64,000 nt of DNA from the NCBI GenBank assembly GCA_947475895.1, contig CANJMF010000015.1, forward strand, positions 1-64,000, given 5' to 3'. A model generated the notes under the pieces. The model saw only the letters and a list, made by a program, of their open reading frames with translations, had not been told where the DNA came from and did no database searches. Source of the stretch: Fidelibacterota bacterium (GTDB lineage: Bacteria; Pseudomonadota; Alphaproteobacteria; Rhodospirillales; Rhodospirillaceae). Below are positions 777 through 37,530 of this stretch, in pieces. The translations under genes were made by a program, and so were the position numbers. Each line of letters begins with the position of its first letter. Position 1 is the stretch's first letter.

Positions 777-1922
777 ATGCGCATTATGTTAGCGCGTCGA
801 TTCGCGCCCAGCGCTTTCGTCCTGATTGTTGCGATCGCGTGGCTGAGTGTTGATGTCCCGGCGAGGGCGGATTCAGTTGAGCAGGCGCCACCTCCAAACG
901 GTGTGATCGCATACGTTCTGACGACCTTTCAGCCCGCCGTCTACCAGACGGCCGATGCCAAAGCGGAATGTCCAAACGGACTCATCGCGAACCACGTTGA
1001 GCAATATGAAGCTCAATTTCCGACGGAAGAAGCGCGCAAAGCGCAACGCGAAAAATACGGCTACTTCCATAATCGCGGAAAGAACGGCGAAAACGTCCAC
1101 TGGTTTCCTGAAAGCATCGTCGATCCCGTGCCGTTCAGAGAGGCGGGGGGCAAGGTTGCGTTCGGACTGAACCTCGATGGAAAAATTGGGCCGAATGACT
1201 TCGTCTCGCCGGACGGCGAAGCCGGCATCGATAACGAATTGTATCGCGTTCTCGGTTGCATTGCGGGTTGGCGAGACGGCGGAGCGATGACGTTTCAAAA
1301 CGAAGTTCGTATGCGCGACAACCCGTACAATCGCATCCTCTTTGTTTTGTCTGGCGTCGACAATCTCGTGAACGATAACGACGTGACCATCAGAACCTAT
1401 CGCGGTCTCGACAACGTGCCGCTCGATAGTCTGAACAAGGGCGTGCCCGGCAGTACCCAGAGAATCGACTTTAAATACGGCCAGCGGTTCATGCACGTAT
1501 TCAAAGGCAAGATCGTAAACGGAGTGCTGACAACCGGGCCAGCCGATTACGTTATGCCGTGGTCGATCGTTGGCGACGGGCGTTTTTCAGCTGACGAGCA
1601 ATGGTATCGCGATACACGTTTTCGGCTGAAGCTGGACGCCGATCGCGCAGAGGGCCTTATTGCCGGATATGTGGATGTTGCGAAATGGTGGTGGGCTTAC
1701 ACCAAAAGAACTGCCGGCAAGCTCGATGACTACGTGCGTAACAGCCCGCCGTCGGTCTGGGTCGCTCTGAAAGCGCGCGCTGACGGATTTCCGGATCCTG
1801 TCACCGGGAAGAACACGGCCATTTCCACGGCGAGCGCGCTGCGGTTTGTGCGAGCCGAAGTCATCAACTTGCCAAAAGAGAACACGACACAGCGTGTTGC
1901 GTCAGCATCAGCGAAGAATTGA
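777..1922 (+). CDS. Secreted protein of unknown function, cassette 1 (gene A1)
   Basis: I do not recognise a named family. The 381-aa product has a Sec signal peptide (residues 1-31, ending PARA) and no further membrane segment. Distinctive stretches are AECPNGL near residue 63, FGLNLDGK in the middle and ELYRVLGC shortly after; the last two recur in the protein at 6830 (YGFDLDGK, ELARVLGC), as does a C-terminal NTAIS/NRAIS segment. The two are therefore paralogues. ATG 777 is preceded by GGGGAGG. The stop overlaps the start of the next gene, indicating one operon with the DUF1592, DUF1552 and PF03640-repeat genes. A periplasmic role linked to these partners is inference. Confidence 0.75.
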   Translation: MRIMLARRFAPSAFVLIVAIAWLSVDVPARADSVEQAPPPNGVIAYVLTTFQPAVYQTADAKAECPNGLIANHVEQYEAQFPTEEARKAQREKYGYFHNRGKNGENVHWFPESIVDPVPFREAGGKVAFGLNLDGKIGPNDFVSPDGEAGIDNELYRVLGCIAGWRDGGAMTFQNEVRMRDNPYNRILFVLSGVDNLVNDNDVTIRTYRGLDNVPLDSLNKGVPGSTQRIDFKYGQRFMHVFKGKIVNGVLTTGPADYVMPWSIVGDGRFSADEQWYRDTRFRLKLDADRAEGLIAGYVDVAKWWWAYTKRTAGKLDDYVRNSPPSVWVALKARADGFPDPVTGKNTAISTASALRFVRAEVINLPKENTTQRVASASAKN

Positions 1923-3643
1923 ACGCGGAAATGTTGCATAAATCATGTAATAGCGCTGCCCGCGTTCGTCGGTTGGCGAGCATGCTCCCGGTCATTGGTG
2001 CGGCATGTTTTTTAGTGAGCTGCAGCGACAGCTCATTGTCACATTCAAGCCAGCAGGCGTCTTCCGCTTCAAGCCAGCAGCCGTCTTCGCCAGCGGCTGT
2101 GACCAGGACCGCGCGTCTGAGAGTGATGTCGCAGGATGAATATACCTACGCCATCAGTGATCTGTTTGGGCCCGACGTCGCGGTGACGTTGACCGTTCCG
2201 CGAGCGCCCCGTGTGGGCGGTTTGTTGGCGGTCGGTACTGGGGTGGCGAGTGTCACACCGTCAATGGTTGAACTAATTCATCGTAATTCCCACCTTGTTG
2301 CTGACCAGGTGGTTGATGTGTCTCGCCGCGAATTCCTAGTCCCGTGTAAGCCGGTCGCCGTAAACGCTGCGGACGCGGCCTGTGCCGACAAATTTCTTAC
2401 CACCGTCGGGCGCCGGTTGTTCCGGCGCTCGCTGTCAGAAGCCGAACGCGCAAGCATGGTGATGATTGCCGGTGAGAGCGCTGAACGGCTCAAGGACTTC
2501 TACGCCGGCCTGTCCTTTACGCTGGCCGGGATGATTTCGTCGCCGCAATTCATGTTCCTTAAAGAGATCAGGGAGCCGGACCCGCATAGCCCAGGGCGTA
2601 TGCGGCTCACCGGTTATGCGAAGGCCCAAAGGCTCAGCCTGTTTTTCTGGGATTCTGTTCCTGATGAACAATTGCTGCGCGCGGCCGAAAACGGTGATCT
2701 CCATACGGCGCGGGGCGTCGCTCAACAAGTCGACCGCCTCGTGATGTCGCCACGACTTGAACGCGGCGTGCGGGCCTTTTTCAGCGATATGCTCGCCTTC
2801 GAAACCTTTGCCGATGTTGCAAAGGACGCCGTGATCTATCCCGCATTCACACAGGCGGCGGTTGCCGAGGCCAAAGAGCAGGCACTGCGGATGATTTCGA
2901 ATCACATCGTTGCCGAGCGCGGCGACTATCGTGATTTGTTTACCAGCCGAAAGACATTCCTGACGCCGAGTTTGGCGATACTTATGGGCATCGCCGCGCC
3001 CGCCCCAGGATGGTCGAAATATGAAGTTCCGCAGGACAGTCAGCGGGTCGGCCTGCTGAGCCAAGTGGGATTTACATCGCTTTATGCGCATCCAGGTCGC
3101 AGTTCACCGACGCGGCGCGGCAAGGCAATCCGCGAGCTCGTGTTATGTCAGAAAGTGCCCGATCCGCCGGCCAACGTTGATTTCTCCGGCTTCGAAGATA
3201 CGCGCGGTAAAATGAACACGGCCCGTGATCGTTTAACGGCACATGCGACCAACCCGGTCTGCGCGGGATGTCACAAAATTACAGATCCCATGGGCCTCGC
3301 TCTCGAAAATTTCGATGGTGCGGGACAATTCCGAACCACGGAAGGCGATGCTGCAATTGACCCGTCGGGCACACTCGACGGCATCGCGTTCAACACGCCC
3401 GCAGGCTTAGGAAAAGCCTTGCACGATAGCCCCGCTGTCACGTCGTGCCTGGTCTCGCGCCTTTACAGTTTTGCTGTGGGCAAGGCGCCCGGCGTGAACG
3501 AAAAAGATTACCTGGAGAAATTGAAGGCGCAATTTGCCAACGCTGGATATCGCGTTCCGGACCTGATGCGCATGATATCGAACGACGATGCATTTTTCCG
3601 ATCGGCCTCAGAGCCAACGACCGTTACTGCGAAGGCGCCATAA
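1919..3643 (+). CDS. DUF1592/DUF1588/DUF1585 lipoprotein with one c-type haem site (gene B1)
   Basis: This 574-aa protein matches the planctomycete-cytochrome-associated architecture. An N-terminal DUF1587-like segment (MSQDEYTYAISDLFG) is followed by DUF1595 (RLFRRSLSEAERA), DUF1592 (AQRLSLFFWDSVPDEQLL), DUF1588 (GRSSPTRRGKAIRELVLC) and DUF1585 (GYRVPDLMRMI). A haem-c motif CAGCH lies at residues 448-452. The signal peptide ends in a lipobox, LVSC with Cys35, so the protein is probably a lipoprotein. TTG 1919 overlaps the previous stop by four bases; ATG 1931 is an in-frame alternative. The family function is not established; exported oxidoreductase or electron-transfer roles are usually inferred from the haem. 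Confidence 0.85.
   Translation: MNAEMLHKSCNSAARVRRLASMLPVIGAACFLVSCSDSSLSHSSQQASSASSQQPSSPAAVTRTARLRVMSQDEYTYAISDLFGPDVAVTLTVPRAPRVGGLLAVGTGVASVTPSMVELIHRNSHLVADQVVDVSRREFLVPCKPVAVNAADAACADKFLTTVGRRLFRRSLSEAERASMVMIAGESAERLKDFYAGLSFTLAGMISSPQFMFLKEIREPDPHSPGRMRLTGYAKAQRLSLFFWDSVPDEQLLRAAENGDLHTARGVAQQVDRLVMSPRLERGVRAFFSDMLAFETFADVAKDAVIYPAFTQAAVAEAKEQALRMISNHIVAERGDYRDLFTSRKTFLTPSLAILMGIAAPAPGWSKYEVPQDSQRVGLLSQVGFTSLYAHPGRSSPTRRGKAIRELVLCQKVPDPPANVDFSGFEDTRGKMNTARDRLTAHATNPVCAGCHKITDPMGLALENFDGAGQFRTTEGDAAIDPSGTLDGIAFNTPAGLGKALHDSPAVTSCLVSRLYSFAVGKAPGVNEKDYLEKLKAQFANAGYRVPDLMRMISNDDAFFRSASEPTTVTAKAP
2044..2091 (+). repeat. 24-bp tandem repeat in the lipoprotein linker
   Basis: Units 2044-2067 and 2068-2091 match at most positions, both beginning TTCAAGCCAGCAG. 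They encode the Ser/Gln-rich linker SSQQASSA-SSQQPSSP just after the lipobox. The unit length keeps the frame, so slippage here would change linker length only. Confidence 0.8.
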
Positions 3644-3688
3644 CACTTCATCATTCAGCCCGACAATGACGGGCAGAGGAGCGACAAC

Positions 3689-5017
3689 ATGAATTCCTTG
3701 ACCAGACGCCGTGTTCTCAGAGGTCTAGTCGGCGGCAGTGCAGTTACCGTGGGCCTCCCGCTCCTGAATTGTTTTCTGAACGGCAATGGCAACGCGCTTG
3801 CAGACGGTTCGCCGATGCCAGTTCGGTTTGCGACTTGGTATTGGGCGCTTGGAATGCAAAAGCAGATCTTTGTGCCCAAGAAGGTCGGCGCCGACTATGA
3901 CCTGCCCGAAGAATTGCTTCCGCTTAAGGAAGTGAAGCAGCACATCAATGTCTACAGCAACTTTGACGTCCTGAGGGACTCGTCGCCTGCGGCTTGTCAC
4001 TATACGGGGTGGGTGGCTTTGCGTTGCGGCGCGGTACCGAAGCAGCGCGGTGAGTTGCCCAGCCCGAGCATGGACGTGTTCGTCGCTCAAAAGATCGGTA
4101 CGGGGACGCGCTTCCCGGCGCTCTACGCCACGGCCACCGGCAATCCCACAAATTCTTACAGTTTTCGCGGCACAAATGCCGTCAATCCTTCGGTCGCGTC
4201 GCCGCTTGAGCTTTATAATCAGGTGTTTGGCGCCGATTTTCAGAACCCAAACGAACCTGTCTTCACGCCAAACCCGCGGATTATGGTGAAGCGGAGCGTT
4301 CTGTCGGGCGTTGCTGAACAGGCTAAGGATTTTGAACGCGATCTTGGATCGGAAGATCGTGCCCGGTTGGACCAATATTTCACCGGTCTGCGCGATTTGG
4401 AACACCAACTCGCCGGTCAGCTTGAGAAACCAAAACCAATTCCGGCGTGCCACGCTTCGACGAAGCCGGCCGAAATTCCCGTTGGTCTTCCCTGGGAGCG
4501 GATCGCTCTTCGGCACAAACTTATGACCGAGATCTTGCAGATGGCCGTCGTTTGCGACCAGACGCGCGTGCTCAACATGGTTGGCGGGTCGGTGGACGCG
4601 ACTAAGGAAGGTATGGCCTCGACGCACCACACGACGACACACGAGGAAACGATCGACGAGAAGCTGGGATACCAACCGACCACGTCATTTTTTACCCGTC
4701 GCTCAATGGAAAACTGGGCGCAATTTGTCGGAGCGTTCGCCAATACCAAAGAAGGTGACGGCACTGTCCTTGATAATATGCTGATTTATGCGGACTCGGA
4801 CCAATCGTATGCCAGGGTTCACGGACTGGATGGTCTCCCAATGTTTACGGCAGGTCGGGCCGGCGGACGGTTTAAAACCGGAATTCACGTCAATGGCAGC
4901 AGTACCCCGGGAACACGCCTTGGCTACACGGCCTTGCGTACAATGGGCGTTGATTTTGACGCTTGGGGCACAGAGTCCAATCGCACCTCCAAAGAAATTG
5001 GAGAAGTCTTGGTATGA
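3689..5017 (+). CDS. DUF1552 protein with Tat-like leader (gene C1)
   Basis: The 442-aa product begins TRRRVLRGLVGGSAVTVGLP, a twin-arginine leader of the kind typical of DUF1552 proteins. The body has the family features: PSMDVFVAQKIG, the ARLDQYFTGLRDLEHQL helix, and a C-terminal TAGRAGGRFKTGIHV segment. DUF1552 proteins are usually encoded beside DUF1592-type proteins, as here. The spacing is 45 bases after gene B1, with GAGGAG as ribosome-binding site. The family resembles DUF1501/alkaline phosphatase-fold proteins, but no reaction is known. Its stop overlaps the next start as ATGA. Confidence 0.85.
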   Translation: MNSLTRRRVLRGLVGGSAVTVGLPLLNCFLNGNGNALADGSPMPVRFATWYWALGMQKQIFVPKKVGADYDLPEELLPLKEVKQHINVYSNFDVLRDSSPAACHYTGWVALRCGAVPKQRGELPSPSMDVFVAQKIGTGTRFPALYATATGNPTNSYSFRGTNAVNPSVASPLELYNQVFGADFQNPNEPVFTPNPRIMVKRSVLSGVAEQAKDFERDLGSEDRARLDQYFTGLRDLEHQLAGQLEKPKPIPACHASTKPAEIPVGLPWERIALRHKLMTEILQMAVVCDQTRVLNMVGGSVDATKEGMASTHHTTTHEETIDEKLGYQPTTSFFTRRSMENWAQFVGAFANTKEGDGTVLDNMLIYADSDQSYARVHGLDGLPMFTAGRAGGRFKTGIHVNGSSTPGTRLGYTALRTMGVDFDAWGTESNRTSKEIGEVLV

Positions 5018-6369
5018 TGCCCTACTTTCGGCCTTCGCGTTCGCGTCCCATTACGACCTTGGGCTTTTTAGCTGTTGTCGTGCTGGCTTTGGCCCCGTTC
5101 GAGAGAGCCGTTGCAGCGGAACGCTGGATTGAAGAACCGACACCTCAAAATTTTCACGTGGAAATGACGGATGTTAACGGACCGGTATTCGCTGATGCAC
5201 GCGGCATGACGGTCTACACGTGGAATAAAGACAAGAGTGGCGAGTCCTCCTGCAATGCTGATCGCTACACTGCCTACTATTCCCAAGAACATGATTTTGC
5301 CCTTCGGGAACCGGAGCGCCGGTTGGCCTGTGAACAAGTATGGCTTCCTGTCCACGCGGAGCCAAACGCGACACCGGTCGGAGCTTGGTCGATTATCACC
5401 AGGCATGACGGCTCGCGACAATGGGCCCACCGCAATGCGCCCCTTTACACCTATGCATTTGATCATATGCCGGGTGCCGTGAACGAAGTCGATCGAGATT
5501 GGCCGGCTGTACGCGAAAACGGCCGTCGACCCCTATCGCCCAAATTAGACAACCCGGCCAGCGTCATGGTGCAAGTGTTTCCCCAATGGGGCCGGGTGCT
5601 GACGACTCTCGACGGCGTGGTCTTGTATAGCGCCAACTTGAAATCGAAAAACAAAGATGGAGTTGGAGCATTCGCTCCATTCCTCATGCCCGAACTCGCT
5701 AGACCACACGGCGATTGGTCCGTGGTCACACTCAAGGATGGAAGCCAGCAGTGGGCCTATTTGGGCCGTCCGCTGTTCTATCCGGTATCGGAAAAGACCC
5801 GCGTCGAAGCTCCACCGGATTTTATCGCTGAGGGCGGATGGCGTGCGGCTCGGCTAATTGACGAAGATATTTCCGGTTGGAGCCCCGTCATCGTTCAGAC
5901 AGCTCCTACCCCGCCGGACGGTGTGATTGTGCAAAGGACGTCAGCGGGCGACGTGCTCGCGGATTCGCGTGGCCATACGCTGTATGCGATGCGTTGTACG
6001 GAAAGAACGCCGGACGAATTGGCCTGCGATAATCCAGGTGCCAGCGGACGTTATCATTCTGATGTCTGCGGCGCATGGGAGGCATGTGAGAAGACGTGGC
6101 CGCGCCTGTTGGCAGGGCCAAACGCAAAGTCCAACAACCGCACATGGTCCATCGCCGCAATCGATCGTACGACCGGACGCTTTGCATCAACGCCAGACAA
6201 AAATACCGTGCGCATTTGGCTTTACCGCGGGCACCCACTTTATATGTTTTCGGGGGACCTCAAGCCTGGGGATATTACGGCTCAATTCGTCAACGAGTAT
6301 GATGTTGACTACTATTATCTGCGAGTTCTTTCCACATCGTCGGACTACGACCCATCTCGTGTGCAGTAG
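5014..6369 (+). CDS. Secreted PF03640-type repeat protein (gene D1)
   Basis: The 451-aa product has a Sec signal peptide (hydrophobic TTLGFLAVVVLALAP, ending AVAA). It contains about four units of the secreted repeat family PF03640/COG4315, each with a DxxGxTxY strand (DARGMTVYTW, DSRGHTLYAM), a Cys-Trp element (CEQVW, CEKTW) and a GSRQWAHRNAPLYTY-type strand. Most COG4315 lipoproteins are short with two repeats, so this is an expanded form. ATG 5014 overlaps the DUF1552 stop by four bases; ATG 5017 is also possible. Function is unknown; the paired cysteines could form disulfides or bind a ligand. Confidence 0.8.
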   Translation: MMPYFRPSRSRPITTLGFLAVVVLALAPFERAVAAERWIEEPTPQNFHVEMTDVNGPVFADARGMTVYTWNKDKSGESSCNADRYTAYYSQEHDFALREPERRLACEQVWLPVHAEPNATPVGAWSIITRHDGSRQWAHRNAPLYTYAFDHMPGAVNEVDRDWPAVRENGRRPLSPKLDNPASVMVQVFPQWGRVLTTLDGVVLYSANLKSKNKDGVGAFAPFLMPELARPHGDWSVVTLKDGSQQWAYLGRPLFYPVSEKTRVEAPPDFIAEGGWRAARLIDEDISGWSPVIVQTAPTPPDGVIVQRTSAGDVLADSRGHTLYAMRCTERTPDELACDNPGASGRYHSDVCGAWEACEKTWPRLLAGPNAKSNNRTWSIAAIDRTTGRFASTPDKNTVRIWLYRGHPLYMFSGDLKPGDITAQFVNEYDVDYYYLRVLSTSSDYDPSRVQ

Positions 6370-6829
6370 CGGATGTGGCCGTTAGTCGAACTCTCCACTC
6401 GGCCGGAAGGTGAAAGCTGGGGTTCCCGCTCGACGGGCGGACCGAATGAACTTGATCTCCCGGATTGTTTTTTTCTTCAAAATAAACGGATGCTTTCATC
6501 ATCGGGGCAGATCGGTGAAGAAACTCGCGAGCCTAGGGTGGACCGGCCGGAAAGCTTGTTGAGATTTTGCCGTTATTGACGAGTGCACTGCAAAATGTGG
6601 AGAGAGCGCGGGGCATTGCAGAAAACCGCTAAATTCATTCCACCGGTAGTAAGGTTCGTTATTCATTTTGTGAGGCTGCCGACCTTTCTTCTCGATATAA
6701 TCTGATAGGGCACGGAGAACTCTGCGGGCGGCTCATGGGCTTTCTGGCGGGGCGGAGGGATTTCGAAAACGCGACGATGGGTGAGAAATTCAGGAAGTTC
6801 GGAATCGCTTTAATCGGAGGAGGGATTAG
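6370..6829. other. Intergenic region between the two cassettes
   Basis: No convincing gene is visible. A TATAAT hexamer at 6696-6701 could be a -10 element for the second cassette, but no good -35 sits 16-18 bases upstream. A strong ribosome-binding site, GGAGGAGGG, occurs at 6816-6824. The 460-base length suggests that the second cassette has a promoter of its own. Confidence 0.4.
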
Positions 6830-7966
6830 GTGACGACGCTCGCACGCAGCAAAAATTTGCCAAGTAAACTCGGGAGCCTTGCCGCTTTGGTGCTCCTTGG
6901 AAGTTTCGCAGCGTTTGACGCTGCCGCTACGGAGAGCAAAAGCTTCGTCATGTCCAGTTTTTGGCATGCGGCCAATAATTTAGAGGGCGACTGTCCTGGT
7001 GGCCTCAACCCCCGCTACAAAGAACAATGGGCCAAAAACCTCGCCGACCTTGGCTACAGTCCGCGCGAAGTTGGCGAAATCATGGAGCGAAACGTCAACG
7101 GGGATGCCCTTGACTACGAACACAACGAGCTGATGCGGATCATGGTGAATCGCGGCCGTATCAACGGTCAGGCCGTAAATGCCTACGCTCACCCAGTCGC
7201 GGTGAAAGACCCCCACCTCAAATCTTGGAACGGAAAGCTCGCCTATGGGTTTGATCTCGACGGTAAAGGTGTAACGCCTTCCTCCTTCGAAGATCCTGAA
7301 TCCCATGAAAAGGGCATCAAGCACGAGCTGGCGCGGGTTCTAGGGTGCAACGAACAGTTCCGCTCGCGTCTGCGGGAAGGTGGCGCGGCGTGGCAGTTCT
7401 TGTGGACCGCGGTGAAAGAGTCGGCGCCGGTCTGGACGATCACTGTCACCGGAGACGACCTCTCAAAGGATGGTCCTATCACCATTCAGTTCGGCCGCGG
7501 CATGGAAGGCGTCAAGCGCAACGGAAATGGAACGGCGCGCGCAGATATGACGTATCGCGCGGACCCGGATCCCCGTTTCGCGAACAATATTTATAAAGGC
7601 AAGATTGAGAATGGCGTGATTTCGGTCACTGAGTTTGGTCACCTGTTCCTTATTCAAGAACCGCTGCTCTATCCCAGGTTCACGCTCGATAAGTTCCATG
7701 CTCGTATGCAGATGAATAAGAACGGCGTCCTGGAAATTCTTATCGCCGGGTATCAGCCAATCGATGAAATTTATCATTGGTGCGGCAGCGCCAATATTTG
7801 CGCGGATACCAACTTCTGCGCGGAGCCGCCTGGTCTTTATCATCTCATGCGCAAATTCGCCGACTACGATCCCGATCCTCAGGCGGGTCAGAACCGCGCA
7901 ATTTCGGCGACATATTACTTGGAAGCGGTACCCGCCTATCTCGTGGACGTACAGAAGGGCCGTTAG
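6830..7966 (+). CDS. Secreted protein of unknown function, cassette 2 (gene A2)
   Basis: This 378-aa protein is a paralogue of the gene at 777. Shared features are the signal peptide, a CPGGLNP / CPNGL segment, YGFDLDGK, ELARVLGC and a C-terminal NRAIS stretch. It has extra cysteines late in the chain (WCGSANICADTNFC) that the first copy lacks, which could form disulfides. GTG 6830 is chosen because GGAGGAGGG lies 5-6 bases upstream. It leads a second A-B-C-D cassette. No family name is assigned, and a function specific to the cassette is inference. Confidence 0.75.
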   Translation: MTTLARSKNLPSKLGSLAALVLLGSFAAFDAAATESKSFVMSSFWHAANNLEGDCPGGLNPRYKEQWAKNLADLGYSPREVGEIMERNVNGDALDYEHNELMRIMVNRGRINGQAVNAYAHPVAVKDPHLKSWNGKLAYGFDLDGKGVTPSSFEDPESHEKGIKHELARVLGCNEQFRSRLREGGAAWQFLWTAVKESAPVWTITVTGDDLSKDGPITIQFGRGMEGVKRNGNGTARADMTYRADPDPRFANNIYKGKIENGVISVTEFGHLFLIQEPLLYPRFTLDKFHARMQMNKNGVLEILIAGYQPIDEIYHWCGSANICADTNFCAEPPGLYHLMRKFADYDPDPQAGQNRAISATYYLEAVPAYLVDVQKGR

Positions 7967-8014
7967 TGTGCCGCCGGTGAGCTTGGCACGCACGTCCTTG
8001 GGAGGATGTTGAAA

Positions 8015-9685
8015 GTGAAACGTAGATTATTGCTGTCGACGATTTTGGCAATCGGCGGCGCTTTAACCACCTTTGCTGACGCACGTGCCGAGGCCGGACA
8101 GGCTGCAGCGGCCTCTGATGGCGCAGCGGTCATGCGCCGTTTAACGCCCGAGCAATACGCCAACGTGATCGAAGAGGTGTTCGGCCCAGCCATAGAACTC
8201 GGTGGTCGTTTTGAGCCGGATCTCAGAGTCGATAGCCTCAACGAGGTCGGATCGGGTCGGGTCAGTATGTCCGCCACCGGTATGGCCCAATACTATTTAA
8301 TGGCACGTAGCATTGCCTCGCAGGCGCTCAGCGAAAAGTCCCGCAAAGTTATGTTGCCGTGCGCGCCGGCATCGGCACAGGAGCCTGACGACGCTTGTGC
8401 CGCACAATTTCTGAATCACGCAGGTGGGCTTCTGTTTCGGAGACCGCTTACTGAGAGCGAGCTGAGTATCTATGTGAAGACTGCCCATGAAGGTGCAGTC
8501 ACGACCAAAGATTTTTACACCGGCTTATCGTTGTCTCTGGCTTCTGTTCTTTCGTCGCCGCAATTTCTGTACCGGCAAACAACAGTTGCAAGTCGCCCGG
8601 ATCATAACGGGGCTTACACTTTAGATGCCTACGCGAAGGCCACGCGGCTTTCCTTCTTTCTATGGAACTCGATGCCCGATGCGGCGCTCATGGCGGCGGC
8701 GGAAAAGGGCGAACTCAATTCCGATAAAGGCGTCGCTAAGCAGATTTCGCGCATGCTCTCTAGCCCGCGCCTCTCCGAGGGCGTGCGTGCGTTCTTCGCC
8801 GATATGCTGCAGCTAGATGGCCTCAGCACGCTCGCGAAAGATTCTGTCCTGTATCCGAAATTCGATACGATTGTCGCACGCGATGCCCGCGAACAAATCC
8901 TACGGACAATTACCAACCACGTGGTGGATAATCGCGGCGACTACCGCGACATATTTACGGCCCGGACCACCTTTCTCACGCAACAGCTGGCGTCGGTTTA
9001 TCAGGTCCCGCTGGTCAACGACGTGCCGAATGGCGCGGCAGACACGTGGCAGCCCTACACGTTCGCGGCCGGTGATCCGCGCGTCGGAATTTTAACGCAA
9101 ATCGCTTTCGTTGCGCTCAACTCTCAGCCTGGTCGGAGTTCTCCGACTCTGCGGGGAAAAGCATTGCGTGAAGTCATTATGTGCCAAAAGGTTCCGGCGC
9201 CTCCCGCGGAAGTGAAATTCGATATCGTGCAGGATACTTCAAATCCCGAGTATAAGACGGCGCGCGCGCGGTTGACGGCGCACCGCGCCAATCCGGTGTG
9301 CGCAGGATGCCATAAGCTCATGGACCCCATGGGCCTCGGGTTGGAAAACTTCGACGGCAGTGGCGCGTTCCGCACCAAAGAGAATGAGACAGTCATTGAT
9401 ACGAGCGGCGAGCTCGACAATGTGAAATTTAATAATGCCGTCGAACTGGGAAAGGTCGTTCGCGAAAATCCTGCCACGGCGTCCTGCGTGGTCGACCGGA
9501 TGGTCGCTTATGGTCTTGGGCGCCCGGTGACGCGTACCGAGATGGCATGGGTGGACCTGGTTAAGCGCGCCTTTGCCAAGGATGGCTATAAAATACCCGA
9601 CTTGATGCAGACCATCGCGCGAAGCCCGGAGTTTTTCCGTTCAGAACGTCGTACGACCGAAACCCAAAAGGCTTCGGCGAACTGA
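8015..9685 (+). CDS. DUF1592/DUF1588/DUF1585 protein with one c-type haem site (gene B2)
   Basis: The product is a paralogue of the gene at 1919 with the same domain order: RLTPEQYANVIEEVFG, LLFRRPLTESELS, ATRLSFFLWNSMPDAALM, GRSSPTLRGKALREVIMC and GYKIPDLMQTI. The haem motif is CAGCH at about residues 429-433. It has an ordinary Sec signal peptide (LLLSTILAIGG, cleavage after ADARA) instead of the lipobox of copy 1. GTG 8015 is preferred because GGAGG at 8001-8005 abuts the in-frame ATG 8006 but is nine bases from 8015. It should be exported to the periplasm beside the DUF1552 partner. Confidence 0.85.
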   Translation: MKRRLLLSTILAIGGALTTFADARAEAGQAAAASDGAAVMRRLTPEQYANVIEEVFGPAIELGGRFEPDLRVDSLNEVGSGRVSMSATGMAQYYLMARSIASQALSEKSRKVMLPCAPASAQEPDDACAAQFLNHAGGLLFRRPLTESELSIYVKTAHEGAVTTKDFYTGLSLSLASVLSSPQFLYRQTTVASRPDHNGAYTLDAYAKATRLSFFLWNSMPDAALMAAAEKGELNSDKGVAKQISRMLSSPRLSEGVRAFFADMLQLDGLSTLAKDSVLYPKFDTIVARDAREQILRTITNHVVDNRGDYRDIFTARTTFLTQQLASVYQVPLVNDVPNGAADTWQPYTFAAGDPRVGILTQIAFVALNSQPGRSSPTLRGKALREVIMCQKVPAPPAEVKFDIVQDTSNPEYKTARARLTAHRANPVCAGCHKLMDPMGLGLENFDGSGAFRTKENETVIDTSGELDNVKFNNAVELGKVVRENPATASCVVDRMVAYGLGRPVTRTEMAWVDLVKRAFAKDGYKIPDLMQTIARSPEFFRSERRTTETQKASAN

Positions 9686-9712
9686 CGCCGACGACCGACA
9701 CTGGAGGCTGCA

Positions 9713-11035
9713 ATGAGCAAAATGATCCGTAGAACCGTCCTTCGAGGCCTCTTTAACGGGGCCGCGGTTACCGTGGGATTGCCGTTTTTGGATTGCTTTT
9801 TGAACAATAACGGGACGGCGCTCGCCGCAAATGGCAGTGCATTGCCGGTATGTTTTGGAAGCTGGCTGCAAGGGTTGGGCTTCAATCCCGGCATGTGGGT
9901 GCCGGAGAAGATCGGCGCAGGCTACAGGAATAATATCCAACTGAAATTGTTCGATCCGATCCGCGACAAAATCAATGTTTACAGCGGTATGAAATACTTC
10001 ATGGACGGCCGTCCGCACGAAACGCACACATCGACCTACCAGATCTGCACAACCGGCGCGGTGTTTGACAGCAGCCCGATCGGACCGAGCATCGATAGCA
10101 AAGTTGCGGATGTGATCGGAACGCGGACTCGTTTCCGCTCACTGGATGTCGCGCTCGATGGATCGCGCGCCAGCTGGAGCCGCCGCAGCGGCGCCTCCAT
10201 CAATCCATCGGAAGGAATGCCCGCCGCACTTTATAAGCGTGTCTTCGGCCCGGAATTTAAAGATCCAAACGCTGCCGAATTTACGCCGGATACGCTCGTC
10301 TTAGCTCAGCGCAGCGCGCTTTCTGCGGTTACTGAGCAGCGTCAGGACCTTTTGAAGCAGGTGGGGGCGAGTGACCGGGTGAGGTTGGATGAGTTCTTCA
10401 CATCGGTGCGCGAGATCGAGAACCAACTTGAAATCGAGTTGCAAAAACCAGCACCCACGATTGGCTGTAAGGTTCCGAAGGCCGAAGAAGAGACCACGGC
10501 GGACGCCGTTATCGAGAACATTGTCGCGAACAGTAAGATTATGTCTAAACTGATTTCGCATGCCATGGCATGCGGCCAAACGCGTGTGTTTAACGTCCTC
10601 TCAAACTCGAACAATTGGCGTCACGGCGGCAGTCCTTATAATTGGCACAGTTCAACGCACGAAGAATCCGTCGATGCAGCGCTTGGGTATCAGAAGGTTG
10701 TGTTCGGCTTTATTCAGGCCGCCAATCAGATTTTTGCCGACTTCATTACGAGCCTTGATCAAACGACGGAAGGCGCAGGCACCTTGCTCGACCGCACGCT
10801 GGTCTTGTGGCAAACGGATCACGGCGATGCACGCACCCATTCGATAGAAGAGATTCCGATCATGACCGCCGGCAGCGGCGGCGGACGTCTGAAAACCGGA
10901 ATACACGTTTCCGCTCCTGGCGAGCCGTGTACGCGCGTCGGTCTAACCGTTCAACAAGTCCTCGGCGTGCCGCTCAATTCATGGGGAAATCGATCCAACG
11001 AAACGACAAAGACATTCTCGGAAATTGTCGTTTAG
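9713..11035 (+). CDS. DUF1552 protein with Tat-like leader (gene C2)
   Basis: The 440-aa product starts MSKMIRRTVLRGLFNGAAVT, a twin-arginine-type leader, and is a paralogue of the gene at 3689. Shared signposts include VTVGLPFLDCFLN, GPSIDSKVADVIGTRTRFRS, RVRLDEFFTSVREIENQL and TAGSGGGRLKTGIHV. It follows gene B2 by 27 bases, with GGAGG before the ATG. Family function is not known. Conservation of the B-C pairing in both cassettes argues that the two exported proteins act together. Confidence 0.85.
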   Translation: MSKMIRRTVLRGLFNGAAVTVGLPFLDCFLNNNGTALAANGSALPVCFGSWLQGLGFNPGMWVPEKIGAGYRNNIQLKLFDPIRDKINVYSGMKYFMDGRPHETHTSTYQICTTGAVFDSSPIGPSIDSKVADVIGTRTRFRSLDVALDGSRASWSRRSGASINPSEGMPAALYKRVFGPEFKDPNAAEFTPDTLVLAQRSALSAVTEQRQDLLKQVGASDRVRLDEFFTSVREIENQLEIELQKPAPTIGCKVPKAEEETTADAVIENIVANSKIMSKLISHAMACGQTRVFNVLSNSNNWRHGGSPYNWHSSTHEESVDAALGYQKVVFGFIQAANQIFADFITSLDQTTEGAGTLLDRTLVLWQTDHGDARTHSIEEIPIMTAGSGGGRLKTGIHVSAPGEPCTRVGLTVQQVLGVPLNSWGNRSNETTKTFSEIVV

Positions 11036-11084
11036 ACCGACCCAGACGAAGTTTTGTGCCTTTAAGTGTATCGCGGAGATTAAA

Positions 11085-12455
11085 ATGAAGCATTACAAAG
11101 GCCTCGTGACGACTAGTACGGCAGTTGCCGTCGTCGTTCTGCTGACGACCGGCGCAACGCTGAAGCCGAACAGCCGGGAACTTGCACCTCTCGCGACGCC
11201 CGAAGGCATCACGAGTCAGCCGATAGGTACGGCAGCAGGGTATTCGCTAAGCAAGTACACGGCAAACAAACTGCCGCGGGAAAAGATCGTCTTCGCAGAC
11301 GCAGAAGGCATGACGCTCTATACCTACGATGCGGACGCTCCAAACAAACCCACATGTACCGGCGAATGCGCTAAGAGCTGGCGTCCGGCGCTGGCACCTC
11401 AAAATCCCAAACTCGCCGCCGGTTGGACGGTTATTGCGCGCGCGGATGGAACGCGCCAGTGGGCACTCCACAACAAACCGCTCTATACATTTGTTGAGGA
11501 TGAAGACATTGGTTCCGTGGGAGGTAGCAGCCCGAGACGCTTCGCCCGCGGACCGTTGATTCAGCCGCGTGGCATTCCGAGCAAGTCGATCCCCGCCGAT
11601 AAACCGTTGCCGGATGGCTGGCACGCCGCGATGATGTATCCGGCGCTGAGCGACAATATTCCAAGCGGCATTTCTATACGTGACGTCGAAGACGCCATGG
11701 CTCTGGCGTTTATCGACGACCGCACCGAAAGAACGCTTTATGCGTTCGAAGGGGACGCTAAAGCCGCCGAAAAAGCGTGTTCGAATCTTACATGCCGTAA
11801 TACGTGGACGCCTTTCAGTGCCCCCCGCCTCGCGATTGGCAGCGGCGATTTTGCGATCGCCTCGCGGGATGACGGAATCACGCAATGGACCTATAAAGGG
11901 CGCGCCCTTTTCATGAATGCCAAGGATGTTCAATTCAATGATGCGAACGGCATAGGAACGGATGAAAGGTTTCAGGTCGCGGCGCACGCAAGATATTTTG
12001 TGCCCGCGAACGTCCGTACACAGTCGACGCATCGACTTGGGAGGGTCTTGTCCACAGTTAACGGCCAAACGCTCTATCGTCGAAATAGCTATATAATGCA
12101 GACCGGCGGTGGACACAGTCTGCGGCGCGGCGACACGGTTCGGCCGGCGGTTGGTCGCGATCTGGGAATTGACCCGCACTGCACTCAAGAATGTGAAAAG
12201 TGGCGTCCATTTCTTGCACCAGTCGGAGCGGTCCCGTCTGGCGACTGGACGTTATATGAGCGTCCCGACGGCAGTCAGCAGTGGGCGAGCCGCGGTTACG
12301 CTCTGTGGACTTATGATGGCGATAAGTCGCCGGGGGACATCAACGGGACCGATACATACGATCTCGCAATATCTCACGATGACAAAACGGTCCTTGATAT
12401 TGGAACGCCTTACGACGGCGCTTGGGCGCTGTTTTGGGTTGCGGCATTCCCGTAA
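11085..12455 (+). CDS. Secreted PF03640-type repeat protein (gene D2)
   Basis: The 456-aa product is a paralogue of the gene at 5014. It has a hydrophobic N-terminus (TSTAVAVVVLLTTGATL) but no clear cleavage site. The first repeat shows the family pattern well: DAEGMTLYTYD, CTGECAKSW, then GTRQWALHNKPLYTF. Further repeats carry CSNLTCRNTW and CTQECEKW, so each has a paired-cysteine element. ATG 11085 is chosen for GGAG at 11075-11078; the upstream in-frame codon at 11025 would overlap the DUF1552 gene and spoil the leader. Function is unknown. Confidence 0.8.
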   Translation: MKHYKGLVTTSTAVAVVVLLTTGATLKPNSRELAPLATPEGITSQPIGTAAGYSLSKYTANKLPREKIVFADAEGMTLYTYDADAPNKPTCTGECAKSWRPALAPQNPKLAAGWTVIARADGTRQWALHNKPLYTFVEDEDIGSVGGSSPRRFARGPLIQPRGIPSKSIPADKPLPDGWHAAMMYPALSDNIPSGISIRDVEDAMALAFIDDRTERTLYAFEGDAKAAEKACSNLTCRNTWTPFSAPRLAIGSGDFAIASRDDGITQWTYKGRALFMNAKDVQFNDANGIGTDERFQVAAHARYFVPANVRTQSTHRLGRVLSTVNGQTLYRRNSYIMQTGGGHSLRRGDTVRPAVGRDLGIDPHCTQECEKWRPFLAPVGAVPSGDWTLYERPDGSQQWASRGYALWTYDGDKSPGDINGTDTYDLAISHDDKTVLDIGTPYDGAWALFWVAAFP

Positions 12456-12544: not shown

Positions 12545-15418
12545 ATGATGAAGTTTTCTGAAGTAATGCTTTCGACGACCGCGATTTCGATCGCGCTTGC
12601 TGTTGGTGTGTCGGCGCCTGTCATGGCGCAGACGGCACCCAAGGCGGCCCAAACGGCCGAGCCGGCGCCTGTGGAAGAAATTGTCGTAACGGGATCGCGC
12701 ATCGTGCGCGAAGGTTACGAGTCTCCGACGCCTTTGGCCGTGGTCAGTGAAGAGCAGTTAAAGGGCAGTGCGGACAACAATCTTGTTGCTTATCTAGCCA
12801 CCCAGCCAGTGTTCACCGGAAACTCGACGACCAAGAACAACATAACAGCGGGAGCGTCGGGGAGCGTCGGCGTCAATACGCTCAATCTGCGCGGTCTCGG
12901 CAACAGAACCCTGGTTCTCCTGGATGGCCGGCGCCTCGAACCTGCGACGGCTGCCGGCGCCGTGGACATCAGTTCTTTGCCGCAACAGCTGATTTCTCGT
13001 GTTGACGTGATCACCGGCGGCGCATCGGCCGTTTATGGCTCGGACGCGGTCGCGGGGGTGGTGAATTTTGTTCTCGATAAGAATTTCACGGGCATCAAAG
13101 GTGAGTTGAGCGGCGGTTTGACAAATTACGGCGACGGCAAAAACTATAACATCGATCTGGCAGCCGGGACCGGGTTTGCCGATAACCGCGGCCATATCCT
13201 GCTCTCGGGCTCGATGTTCCATGCCGACCTCATTCCCGGGAACGCGCGTCCCTGGGCAAAGGAAGGCGGTCAGGTTTTGACCAATCCGGCCTATACGGCA
13301 ACCAACGGCCAGCCAGCCAATCTGTTCGTGAACCACGCTGCCTATGCGACGGGAACTCCTGGCGGCATCATTCTCAGCTCTACCGGCACATTGATTAATT
13401 CGGGTCCGTTAGCCCGCATCGCCTTTGGCGTGAATGGCGTGCCCTACTCGGTCGGATCATACGGCGACATCGTCGGCACCAACGGCATCGCGCAAGGGGG
13501 CGCCTGGCAGACCAACGATATGCGTACGGTTGAGCCTATTTCCACGGAAGAGGCGCGTGAGAACCTGTTTGGGAACGTGTCCTACGACATTACGGACAAC
13601 ATCTCGGCTTATGTGCAGTATTCGTGGTCACACGCCTCTGGGTTCACCCCCGTTGGTCCGGTTTTCAGGCAGGGCGGTTCGGCGGTTACGATTACGATCG
13701 ACAATCCTTTCATACCGGCATCGGTCAGGACCGCGATGACGGCTGCGGGCGCAACGTCGATCAGAGTGGGAACGTTTAACCAGGATCTGGGCATCGTTAA
13801 TCTCGAGTCCGACCGTTGGTCGCGGCGATACATCGCGGGTCTCCAGGGAAAATTCGATGCGTTTGGAAGCCCCTGGAATTGGAATGCCTCTTATCAGCGC
13901 GGCGAAGCCAAAATCACTCAATCGATCCCCACCAATATTTCGCTCGCAAATTATTTTGCGGCGATCGACGTGGTCGCCAATCCTGTGACCGGCGTACCCC
14001 AGTGCCGCAGCTTGGCGACGAACCCTGCTTGCGTCCCGTGGAATGTCATGGGAACCGACGTCAACGATCCCAATGGTGCGGCGTCACGGTTCATTCATCA
14101 TCGATCCCTGTCCTTTGAGAAAATCACACAGAATATATTTGCCGCGTCGGTGACCGGCGAGCCGTTTTCGTTGCCAGCGGGTCCGGTCTCGGTCGCGGCC
14201 GACGTCGAACATCGCAGCAACTCGATCAATATGAGCCGTGATGCATTGTCGGCGACCGCTGGGAATCTTTTTAATAACTCGCCTCTTATCGTCGGATCGA
14301 CGAAGGTCACGGAAGGCGCAATGGAGACGGTTATTCCGCTCTTCAAGGGATTGTCGTGGGTCGACAACTGGGATGTCACCGGAGCAGCCCGTTACACCAG
14401 CTATAACATTGCAGGCAATGTCTTTACTTGGAAAGTGGGTTCAACGTTTAGCCCGGTTCCCGACATCAAGCTGCGTGTCACACGCTCGCGCGATATCAAT
14501 GCGCCTAACGCGACGCAGAACTTCGACACCGGCACAGTCACGCGAAGCAATACGCCCGACCTGAAATACAACACCACTCCAATTGTCACGGTGACGAATA
14601 AAGGCAACCTAACCCTGAAGCCTGAAAACGCGGATAACTTCAGTGCCGGGATCGTCCTGCAACCCTCGTTTCTCGATGGCTTCTCAGTCTCCGCGGACTA
14701 TTGGACGATTAACATCCATGACGTCATCAACTCCCTTTCGGCGCAAAACGTCATTGCCTACTGTTATAATGGGACCAGGCCCGACCTTTGCGCCAACGTG
14801 ACACGCGATCCTACAACGGACCAAGTCACCGCAGTCAGCACCGGCCAATTCAACTTCGCTTTCCAGAAAACGCGCGGGCTGGATTTAGAGGCTTCCTATC
14901 GCACCTCCTTGGATAGCCTTGGCGTGCCAGGACAACTTGCCCTCCATGGCAATATGACGTTTTACTTTGAGCAGCGGGTGGACACCGGTCTCGTGGGGGT
15001 CGTGCCGATCGACTACGCCGGTGAAAATGGCTCAAACAACCTGCCGAACTGGCGTTTGAACACGACCATTTCCTACGATTTGGAGCCGGTTAAAGTAGCA
15101 CTGACAGCGCGTGCGTTCCCGTCGGGCAAAAAGTACGCCAACTACATCGGCTGCACTTCGGGATGTCCGACCAACACGGCCGCCAATCCGACCATCAACG
15201 ACAACACGCTGCCGGGAGCTTTTTATCTGGATATGTCTGTAAACTATGATGTCGAAGTCGGATCGGCTTCCGGCACAGTGTTCCTCAATGTAAAAAATCT
15301 AATGGATAGAGACCCACCGCTCACCAACGGAACTATATTCTTCGCGCCGCCGACAAACACGTACCTCTACGATACCTCTGGACGAGTCTTCCGTGCGGGG
15401 ATTCGCTTTAAGATGTAG
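12545..15418 (+). CDS. TonB-dependent outer-membrane receptor
   Basis: The 957-aa product has a signal peptide ending VMAQ, then a TonB-box-like EEIVVTGSRI near residue 45. The plug follows, with NLRGLGNRTLVLLDGRR and SAVYGSDAVAGVVNFVL, and then a long beta-barrel ending in RAGIRFKM with a terminal aromatic-rich strand. It would import a ligand across the outer membrane using TonB energy. The ligand cannot be read from sequence; its place after the two cassettes suggests it may supply or recover their substrate. GGGGGGAA precedes ATG 12545; ATG 12548 is an alternative. A strong terminator follows. Confidence 0.9.
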   Translation: MMKFSEVMLSTTAISIALAVGVSAPVMAQTAPKAAQTAEPAPVEEIVVTGSRIVREGYESPTPLAVVSEEQLKGSADNNLVAYLATQPVFTGNSTTKNNITAGASGSVGVNTLNLRGLGNRTLVLLDGRRLEPATAAGAVDISSLPQQLISRVDVITGGASAVYGSDAVAGVVNFVLDKNFTGIKGELSGGLTNYGDGKNYNIDLAAGTGFADNRGHILLSGSMFHADLIPGNARPWAKEGGQVLTNPAYTATNGQPANLFVNHAAYATGTPGGIILSSTGTLINSGPLARIAFGVNGVPYSVGSYGDIVGTNGIAQGGAWQTNDMRTVEPISTEEARENLFGNVSYDITDNISAYVQYSWSHASGFTPVGPVFRQGGSAVTITIDNPFIPASVRTAMTAAGATSIRVGTFNQDLGIVNLESDRWSRRYIAGLQGKFDAFGSPWNWNASYQRGEAKITQSIPTNISLANYFAAIDVVANPVTGVPQCRSLATNPACVPWNVMGTDVNDPNGAASRFIHHRSLSFEKITQNIFAASVTGEPFSLPAGPVSVAADVEHRSNSINMSRDALSATAGNLFNNSPLIVGSTKVTEGAMETVIPLFKGLSWVDNWDVTGAARYTSYNIAGNVFTWKVGSTFSPVPDIKLRVTRSRDINAPNATQNFDTGTVTRSNTPDLKYNTTPIVTVTNKGNLTLKPENADNFSAGIVLQPSFLDGFSVSADYWTINIHDVINSLSAQNVIAYCYNGTRPDLCANVTRDPTTDQVTAVSTGQFNFAFQKTRGLDLEASYRTSLDSLGVPGQLALHGNMTFYFEQRVDTGLVGVVPIDYAGENGSNNLPNWRLNTTISYDLEPVKVALTARAFPSGKKYANYIGCTSGCPTNTAANPTINDNTLPGAFYLDMSVNYDVEVGSASGTVFLNVKNLMDRDPPLTNGTIFFAPPTNTYLYDTSGRVFRAGIRFKM

Positions 15419-37525: not shown

Positions 37526-37530
37526 AGCCA

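What the first reader, a model, noticed from the sequence alone, without database searches (positions are those of the whole stretch)
777..12455. Four-gene exported cassette duplicated in tandem
Genes at 777, 1919, 3689, 5014 and at 6830, 8015, 9713, 11085 are paralogous pairs in the same order. Each cassette has an unknown ~380-aa secreted protein, a DUF1592-type protein with one CXXCH, a Tat-exported DUF1552 protein and a multi-repeat PF03640 protein. A TonB receptor follows. Sequence divergence is large, so the duplication is old and both copies were kept with all partners. This suggests a working exported machine that has not been described; a role in taking up or modifying a polymer or redox-active ligand is inference.
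Basis: partly seen in the sequence, partly recalled or inferred. Interest (0 to 1): 0.85.

Follow-up and report, generated by a model that had tools for sequence, protein, structure and literature searches.

The report
Exported four-protein cassette, repeated genome-wide
Two neighbouring sets of four exported proteins in this bacterium are not a local duplication but two distant members of a family of about fourteen such sets in its genome, an uncharacterised module (a heme-site protein, a phosphatase-fold protein, a repeat protein and a new protein family) found among nutrient-breakdown genes.

Summary
The eight genes are real and of the stated families. "Duplicated in tandem" is wrong. The genome holds 14 DUF1592-type B, 14 DUF1552 C, 21 multi-repeat PF03640 D and 22 gene-A paralogues in 20 runs, 99 kb or 3% of 3.3 Mb. 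Cassette 1's closest relative is a block on another contig (73-87% identity per gene); seen from cassette 1, cassette 2 is the most distant paralogue for all four genes, and a tree of C rejects their sister grouping (AU p 0.0004).

"A working module" is well supported. Homologues of A lie with D, B and C in distant Proteobacteria (25 of 33 fully flanked copies with all three); 20 of 20 B genes in six isolates lie near an A; the four families co-diverge; one A-B pair is fused. The expansion is genus-wide (18 of 18 relatives tested).

The parts
777..1922 (+). gene A of cassette 1: exported 381-aa protein of a family without Pfam or NCBIfam entry; predicted mostly antiparallel strands with helical insertions
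   Evidence: AF2 model pLDDT 89.6, pTM 0.90; two invariant Cys among 91 sequences
1919..3643 (+). gene B of cassette 1: DUF1592/DUF1588 (PSCyt3) protein with a lipobox-like site near its N-terminus (start codon uncertain, TTG at 1919 used)
3260..3274 (+). single CXXCH motif of B1 (CAGCH)
   Evidence: counted from the ORF start at 1919
3689..5017 (+). gene C of cassette 1: DUF1552 protein with twin-arginine motif, alkaline-phosphatase-superfamily fold
4625..4648 (+). His-rich HHTTTHEE motif of C1; H314, H318, E319, E320 invariant in 48 sequences
   Evidence: counted from the ORF start at 3689
5014..6369 (+). gene D of cassette 1: exported PF03640 multi-repeat protein (frame open from 4963)
6830..7966 (+). 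gene A of cassette 2 (378 aa)
8006..9685 (+). gene B of cassette 2; CXXCH at 9299-9313
9713..11035 (+). gene C of cassette 2; in a deep separate clade with same-genus relatives
11085..12455 (+). gene D of cassette 2 (frame open from 11025)
12545..15418 (+). TonB-dependent receptor: neighbour, not shown to be a fixed part
   Evidence: receptors do not co-diverge with A

Best explanation
The window holds two distant members of a large family of four-gene cassettes that encode an exported (periplasmic or outer-membrane-attached) redox module. SHOWN by computation: four protein families inherited together, two tight pairs (B with C, A with D), many copies per genome, located among catabolic genes; B has one heme-c motif, C the alkaline-phosphatase fold with a His-rich conserved motif, A a predicted fold without a significant match. 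INFERRED: B and C form the conserved catalytic core, in which C binds metal and the substrate, and B passes electrons through its heme to soluble and membrane cytochromes (as the cytochrome c' and b561 genes next to A-B-C in Sphingobium suggest); A (possible ligand-binding barrel) and D (Cys-rich repeats) are the faster-evolving parts that fit each copy to a different compound. The compound enters through TonB receptors, is oxidised or activated outside the cytoplasm, then imported and degraded by the neighbouring CoA-type pathways. Copy number would reflect substrate range, but the receptor is not a fixed partner.
For: Linkage: of 33 A copies with at least 6 kb on both sides, 30 have D within 1 kb, 27 B and 28 C within 6 kb, 25 all three, 1 none. 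Six isolate genomes: 20 of 20 B lie within 4 kb of an A (coordinates). Co-divergence within one genome: A-D r 0.92, B-C 0.94, cross pairs 0.74-0.80 (13 or 14 cassettes, all p 0.0002); without the twin block and cassette 2 still 0.67-0.95, p at most 0.0042; receptor against A gives -0.25, p 0.74, n 8. A-B fusion ORF of 893 aa at C17. Redox: one CXXCH in 14 of 14 B; cytochrome c' (E 4e-26) and b561 (E 5e-19) directly after A-B-C in S. herbicidovorans, annotated likewise in Sphingobium TomTYG64. Core against variable: own-genome median pair identity C 51%, B 45%, A 38%, D 32%; mean column identity C 70% of 48 and A 41% of 91 sequences. Catabolic setting: of 101 neighbour proteins NHL in 8, FMN_dh in 5, acyl-CoA dehydrogenase in 4, glyoxalase/VOC in 4, MFS in 4; one neighbour is 3-oxoadipyl-CoA thiolase above its cut-off. 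Fold of C.
Against: No activity, ligand or complex was measured; no solved structure related by sequence was found for any of the four. One heme motif per B and no flavin, PQQ or molybdenum domain found in A-D leave the substrate-oxidising centre unidentified. The fold of C is that of hydrolases. A and D occur without B and C in 6 of 20 runs of this genome; B-C occur without A and D in the five loci fetched from other classes of the phylum and without A once in Sphingobium TomTYG65, so the four are two pairs rather than one obligate machine. A DUF1592 protein with a cellulose-binding module is on record in Cellvibrio (PMC6004670, one passage), which favours a carbohydrate role. The 79 loci were chosen by likeness to A and many are cut by contig ends.
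Confidence: 0.38

Rival explanations
1. A hydrolytic module: C is an exported phospho- or sulfo-ester (or other ester) hydrolase, A and D bind the substrate, and the heme protein B is only a structural or sensory partner.
Against: Between residues 44 and 63 of C, around the first strand, where the superfamily usually has an Asp metal ligand (recalled), no Asp is invariant or nearly so in 48 sequences. Every C of this genome sits with a B whose heme motif is intact (14 of 14), which a plain hydrolase would not need.
Confidence: 0.22
2. An electron-delivery module: it reduces an extracellular partner (oxygen-activating enzyme, metal or mineral) rather than oxidising a nutrient.
For: A DUF1587-bearing cytochrome protein of Cellvibrio, Cbp2D, was studied for its potential to donate electrons to polysaccharide monooxygenases (PMC8981238, one passage). 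A domain comparison of Pseudomonas lists DUF1588, DUF1587, DUF1592 and DUF1595 among unknown domains to add for anaerobic respiration (PMC7789669, one passage). KshA-type Rieske oxygenase genes lie directly after C in L182 and L187.
Against: No polysaccharide monooxygenase is among the 25 (of 164) Pfam families shown for 101 neighbour proteins. Rieske oxygenases of this type are cytoplasmic (recalled). None of the 8 cassette-bearing genomes of the window's family that were tested has a KshA_C match.
Confidence: 0.15
3. A steroid- or terpenoid-specific system.
For: 12 of the 15 plasmid records with a match to C are Sphingobium: 11 named Tom and S. herbicidovorans; a paper on Tom isolates reports steroid saponin catabolism, and alpha-tomatine degradation by S. 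herbicidovorans MH (PMC10653915, passages). A lone A lies beside genes annotated 3-beta hydroxysteroid dehydrogenase and beta-xylosidase. KshA_C proteins follow C in two genomes; a 3-ketosteroid dehydrogenase-like protein, below its cut-off, lies in L186.
Against: No KshA_C match in the window's genome, in 6 other same-genus genomes, in one same-family genome, or in four Steroidobacteraceae isolates, all of which carry cassettes. Neighbours in the window's genome look like 2-hydroxyacid, fatty acyl, branched-chain and aromatic (3-oxoadipyl-CoA) routes (partly by eye).
Confidence: 0.1
4. A surface-binding or nutrient-capture module (barrel A with D as scaffold) that serves TonB uptake, without chemistry.
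Confidence: 0.12

Closest known systems
PSCyt3/PSD proteins (DUF1588, DUF1592, DUF1585, DUF1587, DUF1595) next to an unknown gene family, described for Verrucomicrobia and Planctomycetes (PMC5615132, section 13 read)
   Same: B has the same kind of domain set; B and C are adjacent here and, without A, in five loci of other classes of the phylum; function unknown there too
   Different: those five loci have long B proteins (853-2369 aa) and no A or D; the four-gene cassette and its setting are not described in the papers found. That the unknown neighbour in that paper is DUF1552 is my inference; its figure S7 was not seen
DUF1800/DUF1501 pair (one copy in this window, 35924-38769)
   Same: another pair of families of unknown function; DUF1800 matches the C-terminal part of B weakly (E 0.003-0.004, below cut-off)
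   Different: no gene A or D beside it in the window
Alkaline phosphatase superfamily (ENPP, PafA, sulfatases)
   Different: conserved HHxxxHEE motif; no invariant Asp near the first strand; paired with a heme-motif protein in 14 of 14 cases in this genome
SCO0930-type lipoprotein / PF03640 repeat proteins
   Same: D has five PF03640 stretches and matches NF040526 (E 3e-18 and 3e-31) far below its cut-off
   Different: lipobox-like site in only 2 of 21 D copies by a crude pattern; co-diverges with gene A
Polysaccharide utilisation loci (SusCD type)
   Same: works like, by layout: many paralogous copies per genome, near TonB receptors and catabolic genes
   Different: receptor does not co-diverge in eight cases; a heme-motif protein in the core; SusD was not looked for

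Membership tests
PSCyt3/DUF1592 protein family (B) | Pfam PF07631 and PF07627 above curated cut-off | tested here: met
   (101.5 and 96.6 bits; 118.7 and 99.7 bits)
PSCyt3/DUF1592 protein family (B) | CXXCH heme-c motif | tested here: met
   14 of 14 paralogues
PSCyt3/DUF1592 protein family (B) | heme actually bound | not testable with these tools
   needs protein
DUF1552 / HXXSHH (C) | PF07586 above curated cut-off | tested here: met
   14 copies in the genome
Alkaline phosphatase superfamily (C) | overall fold | tested here: met
Alkaline phosphatase superfamily (C) | canonical two-metal ligands and nucleophile | tested here: inconclusive
   no conserved Asp near strand 1; nearly invariant D371 and invariant H400 could be later ligands; no residue superposition was possible
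PF03640 secreted repeat (D) | PF03640 above curated cut-off | tested here: met
   89 and 130 bits, five stretches each
Calycin/avidin-like barrels (A) | fold | tested here: inconclusive
Any Pfam or NCBIfam family (A) | match above cut-off | tested here: not met
Tandem duplication (as claimed) | the two cassettes are each other's nearest relatives | tested here: not met
Steroid catabolic system | KshA-type oxygenase in the genome | tested here: not met
   0 KshA_C matches in G000; other steroid genes were not searched genome-wide
SusCD-like locus | receptor as co-inherited fixed part | tested here: inconclusive
   Mantel r -0.25, p 0.74, n 8, receptors picked by position
SusCD-like locus | SusD-type lipoprotein | not tested
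   no search was made

The most novel reading that the evidence does not exclude
A new class of periplasmic multi-substrate oxidoreductase in which an alkaline-phosphatase-fold protein and a mono-heme protein form a conserved catalytic core and a new barrel family plus a repeat protein act as exchangeable specificity parts; one bacterial genus has built its carbon diet on 2 to 23 copies per genome.
Probability: 0.25. Interest if true: 0.85.

Novelty: new variant of a known kind. Interest (0 to 1): 0.62.

Why it matters
Relatives of B, known from Planctomycetes and Verrucomicrobia, have no known function (PMC5615132). The genus-wide expansion here (3% of a 3.3-Mb genome), the two-pair structure, the slower and faster evolving halves, and named isolates with one to seven copies (Hydrocarboniphaga effusa, Kordiimonas aquimaris, Steroidobacter, Peristeroidobacter) turn an open question about four unknown families into one that can be tested by gene deletion in cultured strains.

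Tried and rejected
Tandem duplication: rejected. TonB receptor as part of the cassette: no co-divergence in 8 cassettes; I picked the receptor by position, and three of the eleven receptor places in these regions (two at a distance or split into pieces, one cut by a contig end) were not used. Steroid-only function: pursued because of Sphingobium, KshA and 3-beta-HSD neighbours, rejected as a general account because the tested genomes of the window's family have no KshA_C. An acquisition by this genome alone: suggested by the class and phylum samples, in which the one same-family genome G344 and the same-order genomes had none, rejected when same-genus relatives were searched. PDB relatives by sequence for A-D: none credible. 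Fold relatives of A: no family stands out. Literature: the listings show no functional description; one search gave the Sphingobium paper; PMC8078820 (passages) lists a modelled PF03640 repeat without a convincing template. Neighbour clustering by BLAST was spoilt by spurious antisense frames in GC-rich DNA and replaced.

Limits of counts. One search scanned 101 of the 135 neighbour proteins listed and shows 25 of 164 families. In some searches at most 5 candidates per genome were scored, so copy numbers there are lower bounds. One search used 89 of 102 outside A stretches (near-duplicates dropped) plus the two of the window; one search used 46 of 57 C stretches (47 after dropping near-duplicates, one more left out) plus two. 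In one search the D and A nearest to the B-C pair were taken where a run has two. Two short single-domain PF03640 ORFs (C14, C3) are not counted among the 21 D. The tree uses 29 C proteins that I chose (14 own, 5 cassette-2 relatives, 10 outside). Of the six DUF1552-bearing genomes other than G000 and G183, five were fetched; G725, with a weak match, was not.
Full report
WHAT IS THERE. The window has two runs A-B-C-D on the + strand, 777-6369 and 6830-12455, then a TonB receptor at 12545-15418. Pfam and NCBIfam scans: A has no family; B carries DUF1592, DUF1588 (PSCyt3), DUF1595 and DUF1585 domains above cut-off; C is DUF1552; D has five PF03640 stretches in each copy. Each of the 14 B paralogues of the genome has exactly one CXXCH, and each of the 14 C a twin-arginine motif. 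A and D begin with hydrophobic stretches that look like signal peptides (by eye and by the crude count; no predictor was available); B1 has a lipobox-like site.

HOW MANY. It has 14 PSCyt3 matches, 14 DUF1552 matches and 66 PF03640 stretches. After fetching the regions I count 22 A, 14 B, 14 C and 21 full-length D in 20 runs by my grouping, 99,357 bases, 3.0% of the genome; two short PF03640 ORFs are left out. Fourteen runs have B-C, all 14 with an A and 13 with a D; six runs have only A and D. A-B-C-D, D-A-B-C and B-C-D-A orders all occur. At C17 A and B form one 893-aa ORF, with C next and no D beside it.

NOT A TANDEM DUPLICATION. Between the two window cassettes identity is 25% (A), 42% (B), 40% (C) and 25% (D). 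Seen from cassette 1, cassette 2 is the most distant of all paralogues for each gene (21st of 21, 13th of 13, 13th of 13, 20th of 20), while the block at C5:73252-78802 is 79, 82, 87 and 73% identical. The dS values of that block pair are alike (0.62, 0.64, 0.53, 0.71) with dN 0.08-0.16, as expected for one block duplication with selection against change in all four genes. A tree of 29 chosen C proteins puts cassette 1 with the C5 copy (100/100) and cassette 2 in a deep separate clade with same-genus relatives; holding the two window genes together costs 416 log-likelihood units (AU p 0.0004). Those relatives are A-B-C-D blocks (53-76% identity) in four same-genus genomes, five blocks, two of them cut within D by the contig end. 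In four blocks the sequence reaches far enough to show a TonB receptor next upstream and not cassette 1; beyond the receptor L236 has an A-D pair (34% and 31% to A1 and D1) and L237 another A (44% to A2). The fifth contig is too short. So cassette 2 is an old four-gene unit, and I take its place beside cassette 1 to be due to rearrangement.

A MODULE THAT TRAVELS TOGETHER. A profile of A found 79 loci in named genome records (the best 80 of 260 stretches are kept, so near relatives are favoured). In these, 104 A stretches of 700 bases or more were found; 87 have a D within 1 kb, 71 a B or C within 6 kb, 8 neither. Of the 33 with at least 6 kb on both sides, 30 have D, 27 B, 28 C, 25 all three and one none. 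B-C-D-A is the commonest order outside: D lies immediately upstream of A in 61 of 84 A copies with enough upstream sequence, and B immediately upstream of C in 53 of 63 C (maps). In six isolate genomes (Steroidobacter agaridevorans, Peristeroidobacter agariperforans, P. soli, S. gossypii, Hydrocarboniphaga effusa, Kordiimonas aquimaris) the 20 B copies (7, 5, 3, 3, 1, 1) all lie within 4 kb of an A (my comparison of the coordinates). Within G000 the distance matrices of the four families agree: A-D r 0.92, B-C 0.94, cross pairs 0.74-0.80, all p 0.0002; without the twin block and cassette 2 they are 0.93, 0.95 and 0.67-0.72, p at most 0.0042. A nearby TonB receptor gives r -0.25, p 0.74 with 8 cassettes, which serves as a control for the method and is a result against the receptor as a fixed part; the sample is small. 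The cassette is thus two tight pairs, B-C and A-D, linked to each other more loosely.

DISTRIBUTION. The family is rare: A in 6 of 385 genomes of the class and 2 of 398 of the phylum, DUF1552 in 8 of 398, G000 included each time. But all 18 other genomes of the genus that were searched have PSCyt3 copies (2 to 23), as do 4 of 6 of other genera of the family (3 to 22), and 0 of 16 of other families of the order; one more same-family genome, G344, has no DUF1552. A occurs in 19 of 19 genus genomes, G000 included, with 2 to 37 matches. Many of these genomes are fragmented, so the numbers are rough. The expansion is a trait of this genus and of part of its family. Record titles are a poor guide to its name: L114, titled Candidatus Marinimicrobia, is identical over 3,300 bases to a locus of same-genus genome G757.

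EXCEPTIONS. B-C without A or D: five loci from genomes of the same phylum but other classes (G645, G546, G467, G715, G610), with B of 853-2369 aa; in G546 my profile missed the C frame that Pfam had found. B-C without A in Sphingobium TomTYG65, whose only detected A lies 200 kb away. A with B and C but no D hit: Sphingobium loci L160 and L162, G183, G140 and 3 of the 10 G246/G326 loci, while Novosphingobium RL4 and G099 have a D. In some of these another gene follows C: cytochrome c' and b561, an exported-looking VOC protein (L160, G183) or a KshA-type Rieske gene (L182, L187); in L184 nothing stands out, and in G140 A follows two small genes after C.

SETTING. Of 101 proteins within 7 kb of cassettes in G000 (135 were listed), Pfam finds NHL repeats in 8, FMN-dependent dehydrogenases in 5, acyl-CoA dehydrogenases in 4, glyoxalase/VOC in 4, MFS in 4. 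Several have Tat-like leaders (by eye). Of eight own-genome neighbours scanned against NCBIfam one reaches equivalog level, a 3-oxoadipyl-CoA thiolase (684 bits, cut-off 597). A KshA-type gene directly follows C in G246 and G326 (E 3e-55, 5e-58). Twelve of 15 plasmid records matching C are Sphingobium: 11 named Tom and S. herbicidovorans. The paper on such isolates, of which I saw the passages, reports isolates from alpha-tomatine-treated soil with saponin and steroid genes, and alpha-tomatine degradation by S. herbicidovorans MH. This is association only. KshA_C was found in 7 of 40 genomes tested, among them G246, G326, H. effusa and four genomes not known to carry cassettes, but in none of the 8 cassette-bearing genomes of the window's family, none of the four Steroidobacteraceae, and not in K. 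aquimaris, G183, G140 or G099. Steroids may be one use, not the general one.

READING. What is shown is a conserved, selected four-family module with export signals, a heme motif and an alkaline-phosphatase-fold partner. What is inferred is that B and C oxidise or activate organic compounds outside the cytoplasm and that A and D adapt each copy. The heme motif in every B, the cytochrome c' and b561 genes beside A-B-C in Sphingobium, the oxidative enzymes around the cassettes and the slower evolution of B and C support this; the absence of a recognised substrate-oxidising cofactor and the hydrolase fold of C speak against it. I give it 0.38.

LITERATURE. Searches with DUF1592/DUF1552 (4 papers), the other DUF names, PF03640 names (mostly unrelated), DUF1800/DUF1501 names, Steroidobacter with these names and Pfam accessions listed no paper that describes the four-gene cassette or a function for B or C; apart from the passages named here I saw listings only. 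PMC5615132 (section 13 read) says that PSCyt3 genes usually lie next to an unknown family, that nothing is known of their functions, and suggests a role with carbohydrates. PMC8981238 (one passage) concerns a cytochrome domain of a DUF1587-bearing Cellvibrio protein; PMC6004670 (one passage) lists a Cellvibrio DUF1592 protein with a CBM2; PMC7789669 (one passage) lists these domains in a design for anaerobic respiration. Only open-licence papers are held, so this is no proof of absence.

Noticed in passing
window 35924-37522 and 37522-38769: A DUF1800 (E 7e-95) and DUF1501 (E 3e-29) gene pair, both families of unknown function, lies in the same window.
   Followed up: partly
G000 C17:20577-23258 (L054:677-3358, - strand): Gene A and gene B are one 893-aa open frame, with C next and no D beside it.
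   Followed up: partly
L162 11402-12747: In S. herbicidovorans plasmid pMSHV gene A is annotated as two overlapping ORFs, so it may be broken there or mis-sequenced.
   Followed up: no
L240 7485-8735: A lone gene A in Sphingobium TomTYG65 beside genes annotated beta-xylosidase, NADH:flavin oxidoreductase (PF00724, E 3e-57) and 3-beta hydroxysteroid dehydrogenase.
   Followed up: partly
L182 13781-14770, L187 13576-14571: KshA-type Rieske oxygenase genes directly downstream of A-B-C.
   Followed up: yes
L114 and G757: A record titled Candidatus Marinimicrobia is identical over 3,300 bases to a locus of a genome of the window's own genus, so the title or the grouping is doubtful.
   Followed up: no
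G000 C31 (6296 bases): A whole contig consists of one cassette, a sign that such repeats break the assembly; copy numbers in fragmented relatives may be off.
   Followed up: no
G000 C16, C6, C7 near cassettes: Several small VOC (glyoxalase-like) proteins with Tat-like leaders and NHL propellers recur beside cassettes.
   Followed up: partly
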